Shown: piece by piece, positions 3,888 through 13,986 of the stretch
Layout of the letters: every line of letters begins with the position of its first letter
Position numbering within the stretch: position 1 is the stretch's first letter
Assembly: GCF_025244845.1 (NCBI RefSeq)
Contig: NZ_CP104264.1
Span: forward strand, 682,001 to 746,000
DNA from: Arthrobacter sp. zg-Y1171
Lineage (GTDB): Bacteria; Actinomycetota; Actinomycetes; Actinomycetales; Micrococcaceae
Length of the DNA: 64,000 bases
Direction of reading: 5' to 3'
Notes under the pieces: generated by a model
Databases searched by the model: none
What the model was told of the DNA's origin: nothing
What the model saw: only the letters and a program-made list of their open reading frames with translations
Made by a program: the position numbers and the translations under genes

Positions 3888-5087
3888 CTAAGAACCAAGT
3901 GTGGATAGTCGCAGTAATGCTTCCTGCAGGTACCGGGCAAAGCTGTGCGGTGCTTCCGCATGGGGAAAATGGCCAAGGTCGTCCATCAGGATGAACTCGG
4001 CGTTCGGGATCCTGTCCGCCAGGTCCTTTACTTTCTCCGGGGGGACCGTGGTGTCGTAGGCGCCGCCGAGGAGAATGACCGGCGGCGTTGAGCCGTCCAG
4101 GCTGCCGAGCTCAGTGCTCAGATCCCAGGTCACATAGCTTTTGATATCCGTGGGATAAGTGCCGTATCCGCCGTTGGTGTAACCCCACCAGACGCGGTCG
4201 CGCCAGGATTTCGGGGACGACGGCGACATGGCGCCGAATATCCATTCGGCCGCAGCAATGTTTTGGTTCACGTCCACGGCATCAAACCAGGGCGCTGTCC
4301 GGTTGCCGACCTGCACACAGGTTTGGGCCGCAATCGCACCCCGGAATACCTCGGGGTAGCGGATTACTGCCCGGACTGCGGCGGCGCCGGCCATGGATGC
4401 ACCCAAAATGACAGGGCGGTCCAGATTCAGCGCTTTGGCCACACGGACCACGGTTTCCAGATAATCGTTCTCACTGAGGGTGTAGTCGGTTCCTGTCCTG
4501 CCCCAGGCCGGCTGGGATTTCCCGTGCCACGGAAGGTCCAGGCAGATCAGTTCGATCCCCTCCGGCAGGCACCCGGCCAGTCCGTGGAACTGCGTGGTGT
4601 CGCTGCCGGCGGTGGGCACGCACAGCACAGGGATGCCGCCGCCGGCCCGCTCCACGAAGACATCACATGTGCCATAGGTGCTGTGTTCAATGCGGTGGTA
4701 ACTGCCCTGCAGGGGCGGTGGCGGGGGAACCGGTTCATCTGCTGACGATGTACGGCGAAGGACCTCGTGGGTGCGGCGGACTATCTGCAGGTGCTGTTCC
4801 AGAACCTTCCGGGATCCGGTCAGGTCCAGATCACCGCGCAGCAGGCAGGACAGCACGGACTGCCACTGCGGTTCCGGGGCCGGATCCAGCAGCCGCTGCC
4901 AGGTTCCATCCGTGCCGTGCAGGGAGAAATCGACCTGGCCGGGCTCGGCGTCCAGGAGCTTTCCGTCGGCGAGGTGAATGGTGAGGACGTCGCCGTCGGA
5001 GACCAGTTCAAAAGCCACCTCGGCGCCGCGGGAAAGTGCCCCGAACTCGGCGTCGTCCCGCAGGGCCTGGATGCCGTTATTCCACAT
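3888..5087 (-). CDS. Alpha/beta hydrolase with N-terminal extension
   Basis: The 399-aa protein has an unrelated N-terminal domain of about 120 residues ending in a proline run, then an alpha/beta hydrolase core. The nucleophile elbow is GASMAG with Ser at about 231, the acid is probably in the AYDTTVPP segment, and the catalytic His is in DLGHFPHAE near the C-terminus. The N-terminal domain resembles the SCP2-like/alkyl-sulfatase dimerisation fold in its pattern of short strands (LTIHLADGKLLDAEPG), but this is tentative. Its start overlaps the end of the lactonase gene by 11 nt. Role: probably hydrolysis of an ester, lactone or C-C bond in the pathway encoded by the cluster. Confidence 0.8.
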   Translation of the reverse strand: MWNNGIQALRDDAEFGALSRGAEVAFELVSDGDVLTIHLADGKLLDAEPGQVDFSLHGTDGTWQRLLDPAPEPQWQSVLSCLLRGDLDLTGSRKVLEQHLQIVRRTHEVLRRTSSADEPVPPPPPLQGSYHRIEHSTYGTCDVFVERAGGGIPVLCVPTAGSDTTQFHGLAGCLPEGIELICLDLPWHGKSQPAWGRTGTDYTLSENDYLETVVRVAKALNLDRPVILGASMAGAAAVRAVIRYPEVFRGAIAAQTCVQVGNRTAPWFDAVDVNQNIAAAEWIFGAMSPSSPKSWRDRVWWGYTNGGYGTYPTDIKSYVTWDLSTELGSLDGSTPPVILLGGAYDTTVPPEKVKDLADRIPNAEFILMDDLGHFPHAEAPHSFARYLQEALLRLSTLGS

Positions 5088-8961: not shown

Positions 8962-9068
8962 CATATGACGGTATTACGGTATGACGAGAGACACTATGTG
9001 CCCGGATTTGATTGTGTCAAGGGTCACATTTGGGCATTTTGAAAATAGGGACTCCGATATGGCCATAT
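8962..9068 (-). promoter_or_regulatory. Candidate promoter/operator region of the catabolic operon
   Basis: Upstream of the MFS gene, TATGACGGTATTACGGTATG (8964-8983) contains the short palindrome GTATTAC at 8971-8977, similar to the GTNxAC core bound by many FadR-type GntR proteins, within repeated ACGGTAT units. A second, perfect 12-bp palindrome ATATGGCCATAT lies at 9057-9068 and may also be regulatory or belong to the divergent gene at 9114. The assignment to the operon's own GntR protein is inference. Confidence 0.4.
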
Positions 9069-9113
9069 GGCCAGGAGCGAAACCGCTCAGCCCTGCCCCA
9101 GTAGAATCGACGG

Positions 9114-9734
9114 ATGCCCGAAACCCGCCAGCCCACCGCACCGCCCGCATCACGCGCCACCACCGTCTCCACCCGCCTGGCACGCATCGTCACCGAAGTC
9201 TCCGCACCGGCCGTCCTCGTGGGAATTCTTCTTCTGCTGCAGCCGCTGCTCAGCCCGGGCGTGACTTGGCTGCAGGGCATCACGGCGGCGCTGTTCACGG
9301 TGGGGCTGCCCTTCGCCGGAATCCTGGTGCTGAAGCGGCGCGGCAGGGTCACCGACCATCATGTGGGCGTACGGACGCAACGCGCACCGATCCTGGCGGC
9401 CTCCGCCGTGTCGCTGGGCATCGGCGCACTGCTCCTAGTCCTGCTGGATGCCCCGGCCGCGATGTTCGGCGAAATCGGCGGCGTGTTCATCGGCATGATG
9501 CTGTGCCTGGCAGCGAACCTGGTGTGGAAGCTGTCGGTGCATTCCGCCGTCGCCGCCTACGTCGGGCTGGCCCTGCTGGCACCGATCCCGGCGGTCGGCG
9601 CAGCGCTGGCCCTGCTGCTGGCCTCGGCCACGGGCTGGTCCCGGGTGAAGCTCGGCGACCACACGCCCACCCAGGTCCTGGCCGGACACATCGCCGGATG
9701 CCTGACCTTCGCCGCAGCCATGCTGCTGCCCTAG
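9114..9734 (+). CDS. PAP2-like membrane phosphatase family protein
   Basis: The 206-aa protein has about six membrane segments. Its C-terminal half carries degenerate PAP2 motifs: WKLSVHSAVAAY in place of the PSGH motif and GWSRVKLGDHTPTQVLAG in place of SRxxxxxHxxxD, with the last Asp replaced by Gln. PAP2 proteins dephosphorylate lipid phosphates; the altered residues leave activity uncertain. TAGAAT (9102-9107) ends 6 nt before the ATG with no ribosome site, so the mRNA is probably leaderless. The gene precedes the ImmA cassette, which contains a second protein of the same type (11279-11863). Confidence 0.7.
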   Translation: MPETRQPTAPPASRATTVSTRLARIVTEVSAPAVLVGILLLLQPLLSPGVTWLQGITAALFTVGLPFAGILVLKRRGRVTDHHVGVRTQRAPILAASAVSLGIGALLLVLLDAPAAMFGEIGGVFIGMMLCLAANLVWKLSVHSAVAAYVGLALLAPIPAVGAALALLLASATGWSRVKLGDHTPTQVLAGHIAGCLTFAAAMLLP

Positions 9735-9790
9735 GGCCCCGCGCTGAGGCCAATCAACAGATTGCGATAAAGTCGGGGGCAGTCTCTTTA

Positions 9791-9811
9791 CATATTTGCC
9801 TGGCAAAGATG
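9791..9811. promoter_or_regulatory. 21-bp palindrome upstream of the metalloprotease gene, candidate XRE operator
   Basis: TTTGCCTGGCAAA (9795-9807) is a perfect inverted repeat around one base and extends to CAT...ATG, giving a 21-bp palindrome with one mismatched pair. It sits 22 nt before the ATG of the ImmA/IrrE-type gene, where a repressor would block transcription. The XRE protein at the end of the cassette is the natural candidate; this is inference. Confidence 0.5.
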
Positions 9812-9832
9812 TGAAACAACGATGGGGGATTC

Positions 9833-10327
9833 ATGACAACGCGATTCGGGAAGTCCGCCGGTGAACGGGCCACCTCAAAAGCAGTGGTCGCCGCCCTGCA
9901 GCTGGGCGAGCACGTCACCTTCGATGAACTGCTGGCCGCCGTGACCAAGACGCACGGAAAACCCATTGAACTGCGCGACATCGACTCCGCCGTCATTCCT
10001 TCCGTCACCGGTCTCTGGATCGAGAAGGACACGAAGTCGATCATCCTGCTGCCCTCCGGCGACAACCGGCTGCACCGCACCCACGCCGCCTGCCACGAAT
10101 TCGGACACATCCTCCTGCGCCACCAAGGATGCGGCGGAGTGGAAACAGCCATGCCGTCCGTGTTCCAGCACATCGGCAGCCGCCAGGGAATCCGGCGGAT
10201 GCTGGCGCGGTCCCTGACCTGGAACGCAACCGAACGCGCCGCCGAGCAGGTGGCCTACCTCCTCTCGCTGGCCCTGCTGCCTCGTGAACGCGACACCGCC
10301 AGCACCTTTGAACGGACCTTCCAGTGA
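9833..10327 (+). CDS. ImmA/IrrE-type metallo-endopeptidase
   Basis: This 164-aa protein has the zinc protease motif HEFGH (about residues 88-92) preceded by LHRTHAAC, the layout of ImmA/IrrE peptidases. Family members cleave XRE-type repressors (ImmR, DdrO) in response to DNA damage or other signals. A strong ribosome site, GGGGGA, precedes ATG 9833. Its stop overlaps the next start by 4 nt (ATGA). The XRE-type protein at 11854-12300 is a plausible substrate. It could alternatively belong to the HTH-ImmA toxin-antitoxin-like pairs common in actinobacteria. Confidence 0.85.
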   Translation: MTTRFGKSAGERATSKAVVAALQLGEHVTFDELLAAVTKTHGKPIELRDIDSAVIPSVTGLWIEKDTKSIILLPSGDNRLHRTHAACHEFGHILLRHQGCGGVETAMPSVFQHIGSRQGIRRMLARSLTWNATERAAEQVAYLLSLALLPRERDTASTFERTFQ

Positions 10328-11328
10328 TCACCCTGCAGATGTTGCCGGCTGCCGCCCTCTGGACGCTGGTGATCATCCGGCTGGTGGGCCTGCGCTTCGG
10401 CTGGAAGCTGGGCATCCTGCCGGGCATGGCCGCGGTGGCCACCGGCGCCACCCTGAACATTGACCAGGTCTACCTCTTCGTCGATTCCCTGCTGGGGGAG
10501 CGGAACCTGCTCAACCTGATCGTCCACCTGCTCATGGGTGCCGGCATGACGGAGCTGAGCCGCCTGCTGCTCAAGGCCACCGGCAGAACGGACGACGACG
10601 GCGGGCGGCACGTGAAGGTACTGATCGGCATGGGTGTTGTCCTGGCCGTCATCCAGACGACCCTGCTGCTGGTGTCCGATACCCCAGGCTCCGCCACCAA
10701 CTTCACCGACACCTTCGCCTCGATCCCCACGATTGCCCCGTACCAGGCGAGCTTCTTTGCCTGGATCGGCTTGGTGCTCGGCTACACCGGTGTCGAATGC
10801 CTGCGCCGGGACAGGAGCGGAGAATCCCGGGAATTCGGCATCGGCGTGGGCATCCTCAGCGCCGGGTGCGGAGCCGGCGTCGGCGCCGTGTCCGTGAAAA
10901 TGCTGCTCATCGGCCTGGAATTTGCCGGCGAGCAGGCATCCTTCGGCCTCTACATCGGCTACCGCATCCTCATGGCGCTGACCATGTTGGGCTTCGCGGT
11001 CGGATTCGCGGTACCGTCCTACGCCCGCCTCAAAACCGCCGCTGCCGCCCGCCGTCGTCGTGCCGAGGACCTGGACGCCCTGCGGCCGATCGTGCGCCGC
11101 CTGATGAAGACCTGCGAAGGCACCCGGGCACTGGAAGCGGCCAACGTGTCCCTTGACGCCCGCACCTCCAAGACCCAGCTCTACCGCTGGTTCATCCTCA
11201 TCGGCGACATCCGGGTCCTGGAACCCGGGCTGCTGTCGCCGGAGGAGACCCGCATCATTGACGAGATAGGCAGAAGAATTGAAGACAACGGAACACCGGC
11301 CCGCCGCGCAGCTGTCCTCGGCGGCTAG
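10324..11328 (+). CDS. MAB_1171c-like multi-span membrane protein
   Basis: The 334-aa protein has about seven membrane segments in its first 235 residues, then a basic linker (AAAARRRRAEDL) and a cytoplasmic helical domain of about 85 residues including LYRWFILIGDIRVLEP. This arrangement matches the actinobacterial family annotated as MAB_1171c putative transporter, often found beside XRE regulators and ImmA-like proteins. No transport activity is shown in the sequence; a sensor or anchor that controls the protease through its cytoplasmic domain is equally possible. It is translationally coupled to the protease gene by a 4-nt overlap. Confidence 0.65.
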   Translation: MITLQMLPAAALWTLVIIRLVGLRFGWKLGILPGMAAVATGATLNIDQVYLFVDSLLGERNLLNLIVHLLMGAGMTELSRLLLKATGRTDDDGGRHVKVLIGMGVVLAVIQTTLLLVSDTPGSATNFTDTFASIPTIAPYQASFFAWIGLVLGYTGVECLRRDRSGESREFGIGVGILSAGCGAGVGAVSVKMLLIGLEFAGEQASFGLYIGYRILMALTMLGFAVGFAVPSYARLKTAAAARRRRAEDLDALRPIVRRLMKTCEGTRALEAANVSLDARTSKTQLYRWFILIGDIRVLEPGLLSPEETRIIDEIGRRIEDNGTPARRAAVLGG

Positions 11329-11863
11329 CTGGTACTCCAGAATCCTGCCGCCGGCCCTGGTGCTGGCCGTCCTCATCATTGCTGCGGGGATCCAGGCGGG
11401 GCTGGGACCGGTTGGCGTGCTCCTGCTCCTGGCCGGCGTCGTCGTGGTGCCCGGGACGATCTACAAGGGCACCAAGGGACTGTTCCGACGCCGCGGGATA
11501 CCGGACCGCTGGCGGGCCGCCCTGGTGGCTGCCCTGATGCTGGCCGGCGCCGTCGTCTGCTACCTCCTGCCCGTGGCCTCGCCGGTGCCCGAAACGGTGA
11601 CCGGGCTGCTGCTCGGCAACCTGGGCCTCGTCTTCTTCCGGCGCTGGCTCAACGTTTCGGCGCACGTATCCGTACTGACCTTCGGCGTGCTTTGGATTAT
11701 GGCGACATACGGGGCGGGCTGGGCGTGGCTGTTGATACTATCGCCGTTGATGATCTTCAGCCGGGTGTCCCTCGGCGAACATACGTTGCGGGAGGCGCTG
11801 TCCGGCGCGGCCCTGGGAGTGGCCACCTTCTGCTGTTTCCTCGCAGTGATGACATGGAGCTGA
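11279..11863 (+). CDS. Second PAP2-like membrane protein
   Basis: The 194-aa product has about six membrane segments and degenerate PAP2 motifs: WLNVSAHVSVL for the PSGH motif and SRVSLGEHTLREALSGA for SRxxxxxHxxxD, with Glu in the last position. It resembles the protein at 9114-9734 in topology and motifs. The start is uncertain: TTG 11279 would overlap the upstream gene by 50 nt with only a weak ribosome site; an internal GTG about 27 codons in is an alternative. The stop overlaps the next start by 10 nt. It probably remodels a lipid phosphate or acts as a membrane partner of the cassette. Confidence 0.65.
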   Translation: MKTTEHRPAAQLSSAASWYSRILPPALVLAVLIIAAGIQAGLGPVGVLLLLAGVVVVPGTIYKGTKGLFRRRGIPDRWRAALVAALMLAGAVVCYLLPVASPVPETVTGLLLGNLGLVFFRRWLNVSAHVSVLTFGVLWIMATYGAGWAWLLILSPLMIFSRVSLGEHTLREALSGAALGVATFCCFLAVMTWS

Positions 11864-12300
11864 ACTACGTGAATGATTTTGATCTTCCCCCGGAGCGCGC
11901 TGCGGGCATCCGACGAGCCGAAACGCTTGCCCGGAAGATCAACCTTCTGCTGGACGTCATCATGTCCGACTCCGGCAAGCCCTTTGACTACCCGACAATT
12001 AGGGACGCCGCGCAGAAAGCGGGCTACTACCTCTCGCGCACCCGGTGGTCGCTGCTGAAGTCCGGCAAGGAGCAAGTGGTTCCAGAGGAAGCCTTGCGCG
12101 CCATTGCCGCAGTCTTCGACGTCGATCCCGACTACCTGCTGCAGGAGGACGGAAACCTGCCCGAGCGGGTAGAGGCCGAACTGGAACTGCTCCGCAGCCT
12201 GCGCCGCGCCGAGGTGCGGAACTTCGCGGCCCGGGCTCTGGGCCCGGTGGATCCCGAGGCCTTGAAGGCCATCGCGAAGATCCTGGACGAGGATCACTAG
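11854..12300 (+). CDS. XRE-type helix-turn-helix regulator
   Basis: The protein is 148 aa from ATG 11854. Residues about 30-95 form a lambda-repressor-like domain of the variant form seen in actinobacteria (YPTIRDAAQKAGYYLSRTRW, then ALRAIAAVFDVDPDYLLQ), followed by a helical C-terminal tail with SLRRAEVRNFAARAL that is conserved in such HTH proteins. GTG 11869, preceded by GGAG, is an alternative start. It overlaps the upstream gene by 10 nt and closes the cassette. It is the likely DNA-binding output and protease target; candidate sites are the palindromes at 9791-9811 and 12427-12446. Confidence 0.78.
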   Translation: MELNYVNDFDLPPERAAGIRRAETLARKINLLLDVIMSDSGKPFDYPTIRDAAQKAGYYLSRTRWSLLKSGKEQVVPEEALRAIAAVFDVDPDYLLQEDGNLPERVEAELELLRSLRRAEVRNFAARALGPVDPEALKAIAKILDEDH

Positions 12301-12777
12301 GCCTCCGCCTCGCCGCCCCGCCGCCTCAACCTGCGTCAGTCACAGTCCCCGCGGCGTTCTTCGAAGCATCACGTCGCCGAGAAATACTTTGACCCGGACA
12401 CCGAGCGGTGGTAGCGTCTCACCCATGTCTCACACATGTGTGAGACGGACTGAAAAGTTCATGAACGGCGGACGGAGCGATCCTGGGCCGATGGGGAATC
12501 TTCGTGCATTTGTGGCTGGGGGGTCACTGCCGAAGTCTCCACCTCGAAGGCTCACCGGCCTCCGTTCCCGTTTTCCGGCGCGTCTCGGCGTGCTGTATCT
12601 GTAGCATCCGCTGCCTGTGGGGGGTCGGTGGATGGCTGCAACCGAAGCCAGCGGATATCCTCCGCTGGCTTCGCTGTTTCCGGAAGGCGTTGAGGCTGCG
12701 CGTAAAGATCGGTCAACTCCTGCTCCATGACGGCCCCGCCGTCCTAGACTGGCGCCAAGCCGAGCCAGAAAGCAGCC
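12301..12777. other. Intergenic region with a promoter, a 20-bp palindrome and a hairpin
   Basis: This 477-nt stretch holds no convincing gene. It contains TTGACC (12389-12394) and TAGCGT (12412-12417) at 17-nt spacing, the palindrome at 12427-12446, and a 12-bp perfect hairpin GAAGCCAGCGGA/TCCGCTGGCTTC at 12644-12672. The hairpin may terminate a short leader transcript before the lactate dehydrogenase gene. A short open frame from 12389 lacks a ribosome site and protein-like composition. Confidence 0.6.
12389..12446 (+). promoter_or_regulatory. Promoter overlapped by a perfect 20-bp palindrome
   Basis: A sigma-70-type pair TTGACC (12389-12394) and TAGCGT (12412-12417) with a 17-nt spacer is followed by GTCTCACACATGTGTGAGAC (12427-12446), a perfect palindrome that would cover the start of transcription. 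This is a classic repressor layout. The regulator could be the XRE protein just upstream or an unlinked LldR-type GntR factor controlling lactate use. Assignment is inference. Confidence 0.6.
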
Positions 12778-13986
12778 ATGAAACGCCGAATTCCCCAGTA
12801 CTCCGAACTCCGTGATCTCGTCCAGTTTCGATCCTTCGACCTGGACCGCCGTCGTGCCCGCCTGGCCAAGGCCACCAACATCTGGGAGCTGCGGGACATC
12901 GCGAAGCGGCGAATCCCGGCCGCAGCCTTCGACTACGTGGACGGCGGCTCGTTCGGGGAGCACGCCCTGCAGCGCAACCGCGAAGCCTTCAATGACATCG
13001 AATTCGTGCCGCATGTGCTGCGCGATGTGACCGACGTGGATCTGAGCACCAAGATCGCCGGCACGGAGTCGGCCATGCCGGTCGGCATCGGTCCCACCGG
13101 GCTGACGCGGCTGATGCACACCGAAGGGGAGGTGGGCGGCGCGCAGGCCGCGGCCGCCTTCGGGGTGCCCTTCTCGCTCTCCACCATGGGTACGGCATCC
13201 ATCGAGGAACTGGCCGCCACGGTGCCCGACGCCGCCAAATGGTTCCAGCTCTACCTCTGGAAGGACCGCGAACGTTCCCGCGAACTTGTGCAGCGGGCCG
13301 CCGCGGCGGGCTACGGCGCGCTGATCGTCACAGTGGACACCCCGGTGGCCGGCGCCAGGCTGCGCGACACCCGCAACGGCATGACGATGCCGCCCTCCCT
13401 GACCGCCAGAACCATTCTGGACGCCTCCTACCGGCCCGAGTGGTGGTTCAACTTCCTCACCACCAAACCGCTGGGCTTCGCCAACTTCGAGGGTGAACGG
13501 GTCTCCCTGGCCGAAACCGTGAACACCATGTTCGAACCCTCGCTGAACTTCACCGACCTCGACTGGCTGCGCGAGACGTGGCCGGGCAAGCTCATCGTCA
13601 AGGGCATCCAAACGCCCGACGACGCCATTGAGGTCCTGGCCCGCGGCGCGGACGCCCTGGTGGTCTCCAACCACGGCGGACGGCAGCTGGACCGTGCCCC
13701 GGTGCCGCTGCGGATCCTGCCGTCCATCCGGGCCGCCGTCGGACCCGAGGCGGAGATCATCCTGGACTCAGGCATCATGTCCGGCGGCGACATTGTGGCG
13801 GCGCTTGCTGCCGGCGCGGACTTCACGCTGATCGGCCGGGCCTACCTGTACGGACTGATGGCCGGCGGCCGGCAGGGCGCCGAACGCACGCTGGACCTGC
13901 TGCGGACGGAAATGACCCTGGTGATGCAGCTGCTCGGCGTCACGAGCGTGGCCGAGCTGCGTCCGGAGCATATCCGCAGCGTGTGA
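12778..13986 (+). CDS. lldD: L-lactate dehydrogenase / alpha-hydroxyacid oxidising flavoprotein
   Basis: The 402-aa protein is a full-length FMN-dependent alpha-hydroxyacid dehydrogenase. It shows IPAAAFDYVDGGSFGE near residue 42, PVGIGPTGLTRLMH, the FMN-site lysine in KLIVKGIQ, and the catalytic histidine at about 298 in VSNHGGRQLD, followed by ILDSGIMSGGDIV. These enzymes oxidise L-lactate to pyruvate at the membrane and pass electrons to quinone. The gene stands alone; the palindromic operator upstream (12427-12446) suggests induction. Lactate is the most likely substrate, but mandelate or glycolate cannot be excluded. Confidence 0.88.
   Translation: MKRRIPQYSELRDLVQFRSFDLDRRRARLAKATNIWELRDIAKRRIPAAAFDYVDGGSFGEHALQRNREAFNDIEFVPHVLRDVTDVDLSTKIAGTESAMPVGIGPTGLTRLMHTEGEVGGAQAAAAFGVPFSLSTMGTASIEELAATVPDAAKWFQLYLWKDRERSRELVQRAAAAGYGALIVTVDTPVAGARLRDTRNGMTMPPSLTARTILDASYRPEWWFNFLTTKPLGFANFEGERVSLAETVNTMFEPSLNFTDLDWLRETWPGKLIVKGIQTPDDAIEVLARGADALVVSNHGGRQLDRAPVPLRILPSIRAAVGPEAEIILDSGIMSGGDIVAALAAGADFTLIGRAYLYGLMAGGRQGAERTLDLLRTEMTLVMQLLGVTSVAELRPEHIRSV

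What the first reader, a model, noticed from the sequence alone, without database searches (positions are those of the whole stretch)
9114..12300. Protease-XRE-membrane cassette framed by two PAP2-like proteins
Seen: ImmA/IrrE-type HEFGH protease, MAB_1171c-like membrane protein, PAP2-like protein and XRE regulator overlap by 4, 50 and 10 nt, and a second PAP2-like protein lies just upstream. Known: ImmA/IrrE proteases cleave XRE repressors. Inferred: the membrane protein senses a lipid or envelope signal through the PAP2 partners, activates the protease and releases the XRE regulator. Both PAP2 proteins lack the canonical final Asp (Gln and Glu instead), which hints at lipid binding rather than catalysis. 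The arrangement may be a poorly described signalling or abortive-infection-like system.
Basis: partly seen in the sequence, partly recalled or inferred. Interest (0 to 1): 0.72.

Follow-up and report, generated by a model that had tools for sequence, protein, structure and literature searches.

The report
Membrane-sensor switch controlling a small RNA
A soil bacterium carries a compact switch, made of a membrane sensor, a protease, a DNA-binding repressor and a lipid-type enzyme, that appears to control a previously undescribed small RNA, and close relatives of the same switch sit beside the DNA-transfer genes of conjugative plasmids.

Summary
The five genes are real. ImmA-MAB-PAP2b-XRE occurs in that order in 12 of 13 related Arthrobacter loci; the thirteenth contig ends early. 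The upstream PAP2a also persists where the regulatory core is missing. The XRE belongs to the EspR family (profile E 6e-14). There it overlaps the start of a predicted small RNA with a G-rich loop and compensatory changes. All 24 sampled genus genomes carry a second copy of this RNA, beside an XRE'-MAB' pair in all 15 examined. Plasmid-type copies have the operator on both sides of the cassette and conjugation genes downstream. The ImmA-MAB pair recurs in 17 of 20 distant loci, while the fourth gene varies: PAP2, alpha/beta hydrolase, MpaB oxygenase, amidase, amidohydrolase. I read it as an ImmA/ImmR-type derepression switch fed by a 7-helix membrane sensor. Signal, repressor cleavage and RNA function are inferred. 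Abortive infection is not supported.

The parts
9114..9734 (+). PAP2a, PAP2-family membrane protein; neighbour, not part of the regulatory core
   Evidence: Pfam PAP2 E 4e-7; upstream in 7 of 13 homologous loci; present in 24 of 29 genus genomes, including 5 of the 10 known to lack this cassette; directly followed by PAP2b in 3 of those 5
9833..10327 (+). ImmA/IrrE-type (M78) metalloprotease, HEFGH, proposed anti-repressor
   Evidence: HExxH, E134, E138 invariant in 47 of 47 aligned sequences; weak capP E 1.2e-4; matched beside MAB in 13 of 13 near loci, split over two frames in L007, and in 17 of 20 distant loci
10324..11328 (+). MAB_1171c-like 7-helix membrane protein with cytosolic helical tail, proposed sensor
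11279..11863 (+). PAP2b, PAP2-like membrane protein, the interchangeable fourth gene
   Evidence: SxH and SR..H retained, E172 in place of Asp in 16 of 17; other enzymes in this role elsewhere
11854..12300 (+). EspR-family XRE regulator, proposed repressor
   Evidence: phmmer EspR E 9e-4; profile E 6e-14; in four comparisons 84-89% aa identity while its partners are 49-77%, with four-fold sites about equally diverged
12389..12417 (+). putative promoter of the small RNA, TTGACC-17-TAGCGT
   Evidence: a -35/-10-like pair at this place in 10 of 10 chromosomal-type copies, TTGACC itself in 8 of 10 (alignment); not called by the generic promoter scan
12430..12443 (.). proposed XRE operator TCACACATGTGTGA
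   Evidence: only exact match of TCACRCATGYGTGA in 3.42 Mb (0.03 expected); just after XRE in 14 of 14 genus genomes with the window-type XRE and absent from the other 10
12424..12679 (+). proposed small RNA 1; start inferred, ends at the terminator-like hairpin
   Evidence: alignment of 10 copies, folds, covariation, no conserved ORF, no Rfam match at E<=1; no expression data
12512..12527 (+). hairpin HP0 with UGGGGGG loop inside small RNA 1
   Evidence: found by script in 5 of 9 other chromosomal-type loci; in the window it needs a G-U pair (by eye); coordinates
12601..12639 (+). hairpin HP1 with invariant UGGGGG loop, conserved core of the RNA
   Evidence: coordinates
12644..12672 (+). terminator-like hairpin GAAGCCAGCGGA..TCCGCTGGCTTC
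   Evidence: not called by the generic terminator scan, which needs a T run

Best explanation
The cassette is a membrane-coupled repressor-protease switch. The EspR-like XRE dimer binds the palindrome TCACACATGTGTGA across the start site of the next transcription unit and keeps it off. The 7-helix MAB protein senses a small hydrophobic molecule or an envelope state and activates or releases the co-encoded ImmA protease, which inactivates the XRE and derepresses the promoter. The interchangeable fourth enzyme (here PAP2b) makes, changes or removes the molecule that is sensed. In the window's chromosomal form the output is a small RNA of about 255 nt with exposed UGGGGG loops. In plasmid-type forms the operator lies before ImmA and again between XRE and the conjugation operon, so the output there is probably DNA transfer. 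Shown by sequence: gene order, EspR family, operator conservation and uniqueness, structured RNA, enzyme swapping, plasmid position. Inferred: promoter activity, binding, cleavage, ligand, direction of regulation and RNA function.
For: Core order conserved. EspR family by profile E 6e-14. A CATG-centred 14-bp palindrome with at most 1 mismatch lies within 300 nt before the first gene or after XRE in 35 of 38 cassettes, against 66 of 563 other ORFs, some of which adjoin the cassette. Perfect palindromes only: upstream of 12 of 39 ImmA genes, 11 of 543 other ORFs. The palindrome differs between XRE subfamilies but keeps the centre. The operator is unique in the genome. The window-type XRE, operator and RNA1 occur together in 14 of 14 genus genomes; the other 10 have neither operator nor RNA1. 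The XRE protein is constrained while its silent sites are about as diverged as its partners'. ImmA catalytic residues are invariant. 7TM-like model. Conjugation-type genes follow the XRE in 7 of 10 plasmid regions read and T4SS homologues lie beside further copies. Precedent: in ICEBs1 ImmA cleaves ImmR and so switches on conjugation (PMC6540685, passages).
Against: No binding, cleavage or expression data. In the window the operator is not upstream of ImmA, so autoregulation, if any, differs from plasmid-type copies. The generic promoter and terminator scans call nothing at 12300-12780. M. tuberculosis EspR is reported to recognise TTTGC[TC][GA] at hundreds of sites as a nucleoid protein (PMC3315491, passages), unlike a single-site repressor. 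MAB may be a transporter, as NCBI names the family; the 7TM match is in the range that helical bundles can reach by arrangement alone and Foldseek gives nothing significant. Three of 38 cassettes lack a palindrome. The operator pattern also occurs in 13 family genomes outside the genus, of which only G381 and G410 are known cassette carriers; the other 11 were not examined. Three of 10 plasmid regions have no co-oriented transfer genes downstream, and L114's transfer genes do not match those of FB24. Many EspR-like homologues have no ImmA or MAB beside them. Two of the five shuffle measures of the RNA helix are not better than chance.
Confidence: 0.6

Rival explanations
1. A stranded remnant of a conjugative plasmid or element: the chromosomal cassette is a captured plasmid immunity region whose very similar XRE and operator now repress transfer genes of incoming relatives, and the RNA is incidental.
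For: XRE 90% identical to a Paenarthrobacter plasmid XRE and the operator is the same. The promoter-like stretch after XRE is alike in chromosomal-type and plasmid-type copies (by eye). ImmA, MAB and XRE are missing in three relatives that keep PAP2a-PAP2b.
Against: The RNA core is conserved with covariation and has a second copy at an unrelated, genus-wide locus, which incidental sequence would not explain. No homologue of the FB24 T4SS proteins in the window.
Confidence: 0.2
2. An envelope-stress system: PAP2a and PAP2b turn over a polyprenyl or phospholipid phosphate, MAB is a transporter or sensor for it, and ImmA/XRE adjust the RNA to cell-wall state, with no intercellular signal.
For: PAP2a and PAP2b stay adjacent in three genomes without the regulators. 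PAP2 catalytic histidines and arginine kept. A MAB_1171c mutant of M. abscessus made about half the biofilm (PMC8707978, passages).
Against: Fourth genes elsewhere include an amidase and an amidohydrolase with no plain tie to wall lipids. Plasmid copies sit at transfer genes.
Confidence: 0.15
3. An anti-phage or abortive-infection system, comparable to CapH-CapP-controlled operons.
For: Weak PADLOC matches: CapP E 1.2e-4, CapH 3e-3, RmrA 3e-3, '2TM effector' for MAB 0.047.
Against: No recognised toxin or nuclease in the conserved set, no phage record matches the XRE, and the conserved neighbours are transfer genes or a small RNA.
Confidence: 0.05

Closest known systems
ImmR-ImmA switch of ICEBs1 (with RapI-PhrI)
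   Same: XRE repressor and anti-repressor metalloprotease on a conjugative element, with a sensing branch upstream of the protease (PMC6540685, passages)
   Different: EspR-family repressor in place of ImmR, an integral 7-helix protein and a changeable enzyme in place of RapI-PhrI, and a small RNA as proposed output in the chromosomal form
EspR of Mycobacterium tuberculosis
   Same: Same protein family along nearly the whole length
   Different: EspR is reported to bind hundreds of sites with a TTTGC[TC][GA] motif (PMC3315491, passages); here one exact CATG palindrome in the genome
CapH-CapP regulators of CBASS operons
   Same: HTH repressor plus M78-type protease beside the operon they control (recalled; weak profile matches)
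   Different: No recognised defence effector, and an added membrane protein
Xre-COG2856 pairs of Makarova et al. 2009
   Same: Zn-protease gene next to an Xre gene (PMC2701414, passages)
   Different: That survey excluded three Xre-membrane-protein pairs and treats Xre-COG2856 as toxin-antitoxin-like
Brt-Trp RNA/HTH tandems of Bartonella
   Same: Genus-limited family of 194-203-nt RNAs next to HTH regulator genes (PMC5387305, abstract)
   Different: The RNA lies upstream of the HTH gene there; the abstract mentions no protease or sensor

Membership tests
ImmA/IrrE (M78) metalloprotease | HExxH plus a distal acidic residue | tested here: met
   H88, E89, H92, E134, E138 invariant in 47 of 47 aligned sequences; the Pfam score itself is below cut-off; that the glutamates bind metal is recalled, not tested
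EspR family | near full-length profile match to EspR (HTH and C-terminal region) | tested here: met
   profile E 6e-14 to 4ndw over profile positions 14-139 of 151
EspR family | TTTGC[TC][GA] recognition and genome-wide nucleoid binding | tested here: inconclusive
   footprinting gives CATG palindromes instead and one exact site; binding not measured
MAB_1171c family (NF042915) | score over the curated 100-bit cut-off | tested here: not met
   61.3 bits, E 8e-17; a divergent relative. Distant loci that pass the cut-off also have ImmA beside MAB (for example L209, L210, L212)
PAP2 phosphatase | motif residues SxH, SR and H...D | tested here: inconclusive
   all but the last Asp, which is Glu or Gln; activity untested; structure job not finished
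ImmR-ImmA switch | protease cleaves the co-encoded XRE repressor | not testable with these tools
   needs protein work
ImmR-ImmA switch | repressor site at the promoter of the controlled unit | tested here: inconclusive
   palindrome just after a -35/-10-like pair in 10 of 10 chromosomal-type copies, by conservation only; generic scan calls no promoter
Known Rfam RNA | match to an Rfam 15 model | tested here: not met
   none at E<=1 in window 9000-13000; only ylbH at E 0.33, below its gathering score, for the second copy; 6C not found in the genome at E<=0.001
Abortive infection / CBASS | a recognised defence effector or nucleotidyltransferase among the five proteins at E<=0.001 | tested here: not met
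   PADLOC and Pfam on the five proteins; the best effector-type match is MAB to '2TM' at E 0.047

The most novel reading that the evidence does not exclude
A widespread, modular class of chemical signalling circuits in Actinomycetota: a GPCR-like 7-helix receptor coupled to an ImmA protease and a locally acting EspR-type repressor, each paired with its own changeable enzyme that makes or destroys its signal. On plasmids it would be a mate- or self-sensing switch for conjugation; on the Arthrobacter chromosome it drives a new small RNA family whose exposed UGGGGG loops act in trans and which is shared with a second, genus-wide sensor locus.
Probability: 0.35. Interest if true: 0.9.

Novelty: new variant of a known kind. 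Interest (0 to 1): 0.74.

Why it matters
It would give conjugation in Actinomycetota a concrete, testable regulator (core genes, operator, candidate signal enzyme). It would also assign a role to MAB_1171c proteins, now only 'putative transporters', show an EspR relative working as a single-site switch, and add a small RNA family controlled by a membrane sensor. The enzyme swapping suggests that one receptor-protease core reads many different signals.

Tried and rejected
6C-sponge idea: the G-rich loop suggested pairing with the C-rich 6C RNA, but no 6C match in the genome at E<=0.001; dropped. Small-ORF idea for 12430-12680: no reading frame is conserved among 10 copies. Leader/attenuator idea: at the second locus the next large ORF is convergent and the genes downstream of copy 1 differ between species, so a stand-alone RNA is preferred; an alternative pairing between HP1 and the terminator arm was seen by eye and not tested. 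Wider regulon: with up to 2 mismatches the operator pattern gives 9 sites and the reversed control also 9, so only the exact site counts. RNA model on 44 plasmid-type and paralogous loci: 24 matches up to E 5, best L114 2513-2605 at 8e-6, not beside the XRE; none was taken as a copy. GGGGG-loop hairpins after XRE in L012, L014 and L115 came from a hairpin script, not from the model, and were absent from L011, L013, L096 and L114. T4SS in the own genome: none found with one query protein, but that call had no positive control in it.

Literature: MAB_1171c (1 paper), DUF6545 (0), ImmA/ImmR/conjugative (12 of 34 listed), EspR with conjugative plasmid (10 of 59 listed), Arthrobacter/sRNA (10 of 41), ImmA/Streptomyces/XRE and others (8 of 53), CapH/CapP/CBASS/ImmA (6 of 16), EspR motif (8 of 23), Arthrobacter/conjugative transfer (8 of 28), DUF2236/ImmA/XRE (8 of 8). 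In the listings and passages seen there was no account of this cassette or RNA; the library holds open-licence papers only and most listings were capped. A 2016 paper on conserved DNA repeats beside the T4SS of Arthrobacter plasmids (Mihasan and Brandsch, cited in PMC6305408, passages) is not held and could already describe some of the palindromes.
Full report
WHAT IS THERE. The window lies in a single-contig 3.42-Mb chromosome, Arthrobacter by its named near-identical homologues. Among 13 named Arthrobacter loci found with the MAB protein, 12 carry ImmA-MAB-PAP2b-XRE in that order; in the thirteenth (L009) the contig ends after MAB, and in L007 ImmA is split over two frames. PAP2a lies upstream in 7 of 13, in two of them with another gene between. 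PAP2a is found in 24 of 29 genus genomes, including 5 of the 10 known to lack this cassette. In three of those five, PAP2a is followed directly by PAP2b with no match to ImmA, MAB or XRE; one has PAP2a with a lone ImmA match, one PAP2a alone. So the regulatory core behaves as one unit and the PAP2 pair as another.

A SWAPPED FOURTH GENE. I annotated 39 further Micrococcaceae loci with profiles built here. ImmA-MAB recurs there with PAP2a-type proteins by profile (L080-L083, L098), with TM-anchored alpha/beta hydrolases (Pfam on L086, L110, L111; by size and sequence L091, L095, L099-L101, L107) or with an MpaB-type oxygenase (Pfam on L093; L113 by size; plasmid L118 as annotated); in L105 and L106 nothing lies between MAB and XRE. 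L078 has MAB, a hydrolase and XRE but no labelled ImmA. Several loci have the XRE without ImmA or MAB (for example L075-L077, L085, L092). Over the phylum, NF042915 matches 20 of 246 genomes, own included. In 20 distant loci fetched from this and the order search, ImmA is next to MAB in 17; it is not in L214, L218 and L222 (in L223 and L224 the MAB gene was known from the family search). Same-strand neighbours include an amidohydrolase (L209), an amidase (L210), an alpha/beta hydrolase (L226), weak flavoenzyme matches (L213, L221, and L218 without ImmA) and PAP2-like proteins (L212, L216, L228); in L211, L215 and L217 the neighbouring enzyme is on the other strand.

THE OPERATOR. Regions upstream of ImmA showed palindromes by eye. 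Counted, 35 of 38 cassettes have a CATG-centred 14-bp palindrome (at most one mismatch) within 300 nt before the first gene or after XRE, against 66 of 563 other ORFs, some of them cassette neighbours (Fisher 2e-26, not corrected for relatedness; one locus is counted twice and near-identical loci are included). Perfect palindromes alone lie upstream of 12 of 39 ImmA, 4 of 55 XRE, 0 of 42 MAB and 11 of 543 other genes; of the 11 non-cassette ORFs with perfect palindromes listed, 10 carry a cassette-type palindrome. The sequence goes with the XRE subfamily: TCACACATGTGTGA, TTGAACATGTTCAA, TGAAACATGTTTCA, CGGAACATGTTCCG, CTGGACATGTCCAG, TTGAGCATGCTCAA, TTAGACATGTCTAA. For the window's XRE it is TCACACATGTGTGA, found once in the whole genome (0.03 expected), at 12430-12443. 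Six copies (L011-L014, L114, L115) have it, or a one-letter variant, both before ImmA and after XRE. Outside the genus the pattern occurs in 13 further family genomes, two of them known carriers; the reversed control occurs in 3 of 295. The XRE is 89% identical to that of a Paenarthrobacter plasmid while ImmA, MAB and PAP2b are 61-65%; four-fold sites are 36-40% identical in all four genes, so the protein is held by selection (90% over the part matched by tblastn).

THE SMALL RNA. In ten chromosomal-type copies the operator (exact in 9, one mismatch in L006) follows a -35/-10-like pair and precedes a stretch ending in two hairpins. In the 3' domain 6 of 20 predicted pairs have at least one sequence with both sides changed, among 14 sequences. 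HP1 with its outer helix was counted on 27 sequences of both copies: 90% of cells paired against 24-50% when slid by 1-3 columns. Column shuffles reach the observed value in 3 of 500 for cells paired, 2 of 500 for cells changed on both sides and 9 of 500 for covariation, but in 108 of 500 for pairs changed on both sides and 353 of 500 for further pair types. The loop UGGGGG is invariant in the 27. No frame is conserved and no Rfam family matches. The length is 128-318 nt over the ten copies. A covariance model finds the RNA at E<1e-15 in all 24 sampled genus genomes, own included. Fourteen of the 24 carry the window-type XRE; exactly those have the operator and the cassette copy of the RNA. 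All 24 have the other copy. Where I looked at its flanks (14 genomes and the own L003) it lies beside an XRE'-MAB' pair (own genome: L003 2529-3254, 3251-3988, RNA 4045-4118) with a conserved promoter-like block. Family-wide, 61 of 295 genomes have a match at E<=0.01, most outside the genus weak. Of six non-genus loci examined, five, all of one genus, have XRE'-MAB' beside the RNA and keep HP1 with a different terminator.

PLASMIDS. The XRE matches 58 of 72,556 plasmid records (20 typed conjugative, 12 mobilizable, 26 non-mobilizable), MAB 13 (10 conjugative); the XRE matches no phage record. I read ten plasmid regions. In seven (L114-L118, L230, L231) conjugation-type genes follow the XRE on the same strand: in six after a small convergent gene (annotated HTH in three), in L231, which lacks ImmA and MAB, after IS genes. 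L114 is typed non-mobilizable and its transfer genes do not match those of FB24. In L229 and L232 none is near, and in L233 the transglycosylase is on the other strand. T4SS proteins of FB24 plasmid 1 (CHAP and the next large ORF, or more) match beside the XRE in L011-L014, L078, L084, L088, L096, L112, L115, L117, L230 and L231, and partly in L116; several loci give only weak CHAP matches or a single ORF, and the window, L004-L010, L015, L016 and L102 give none (only about 6 kb of flank is held for most loci). Copies with the RNA and copies with transfer genes thus share operator and repressor but differ in the unit that follows.

MECHANISM. By analogy with ICEBs1, where ImmA cleaves ImmR and RapI-PhrI controls ImmA (PMC6540685, passages), MAB would be the sensing branch, the fourth enzyme would set the level of what it senses, and loss of XRE would open the operator-blocked promoter. 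Every step after operator placement is inference.

ORDINARY OR NEW. Each protein has known relatives. I found no description of the combination, the operator set or the RNA in the searches listed under Tried and rejected, which cover open-licence papers only and mostly capped listings.

Noticed in passing
L003 2529-4118 (own genome 124528-126117): A second locus: XRE' (241 aa), MAB' (245 aa, 4-nt overlap) and a second copy of the small RNA just downstream; this RNA copy was found in all 24 sampled genus genomes.
   Followed up: yes
upstream of ImmA in L086, L099, L100; L176-L180: A hairpin with loop AGTCCCCCAACTT stands before alpha/beta-hydrolase-type cassettes; the core motif occurs once each in 5 of 29 genus genomes, in four of them near such a cassette (the fifth, G570, not checked). 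Its CCCCCA could pair with the small RNA's UGGGGG loop (by eye).
   Followed up: partly
window 12512-12527: A second hairpin with a UGGGGGG loop inside the small RNA, so the loop is repeated within one transcript.
   Followed up: partly
window 9770-9832: By eye, the ImmA leader has a small hairpin whose arms change together between species (e.g. TTTACAT/ATGTGAA, TTCACAC/GTGTGAA) before ACGATGGGG; not counted.
   Followed up: no
L011 5651-5995 and the like on other plasmid-type copies: A small HTH-type gene lies convergent between XRE and the transfer genes; the operator-bearing promoter-like stretch after XRE would read antisense to it.
   Followed up: partly
L231 (pTC1), L075-L077, L085, L092: EspR-like genes without ImmA or MAB beside them, in pTC1 upstream of transfer-type genes: the repressor also exists alone.
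   Followed up: no
L007 5502-5998: The ImmA copy is split over two frames and looks frame-shifted.
   Followed up: no
L012, L014, L115, about 180-230 nt after XRE: Three of seven plasmid-type copies carry a CCGCCTG..TTGGGGG..CAGGCGG-like hairpin behind the second operator, resembling HP1.
   Followed up: partly
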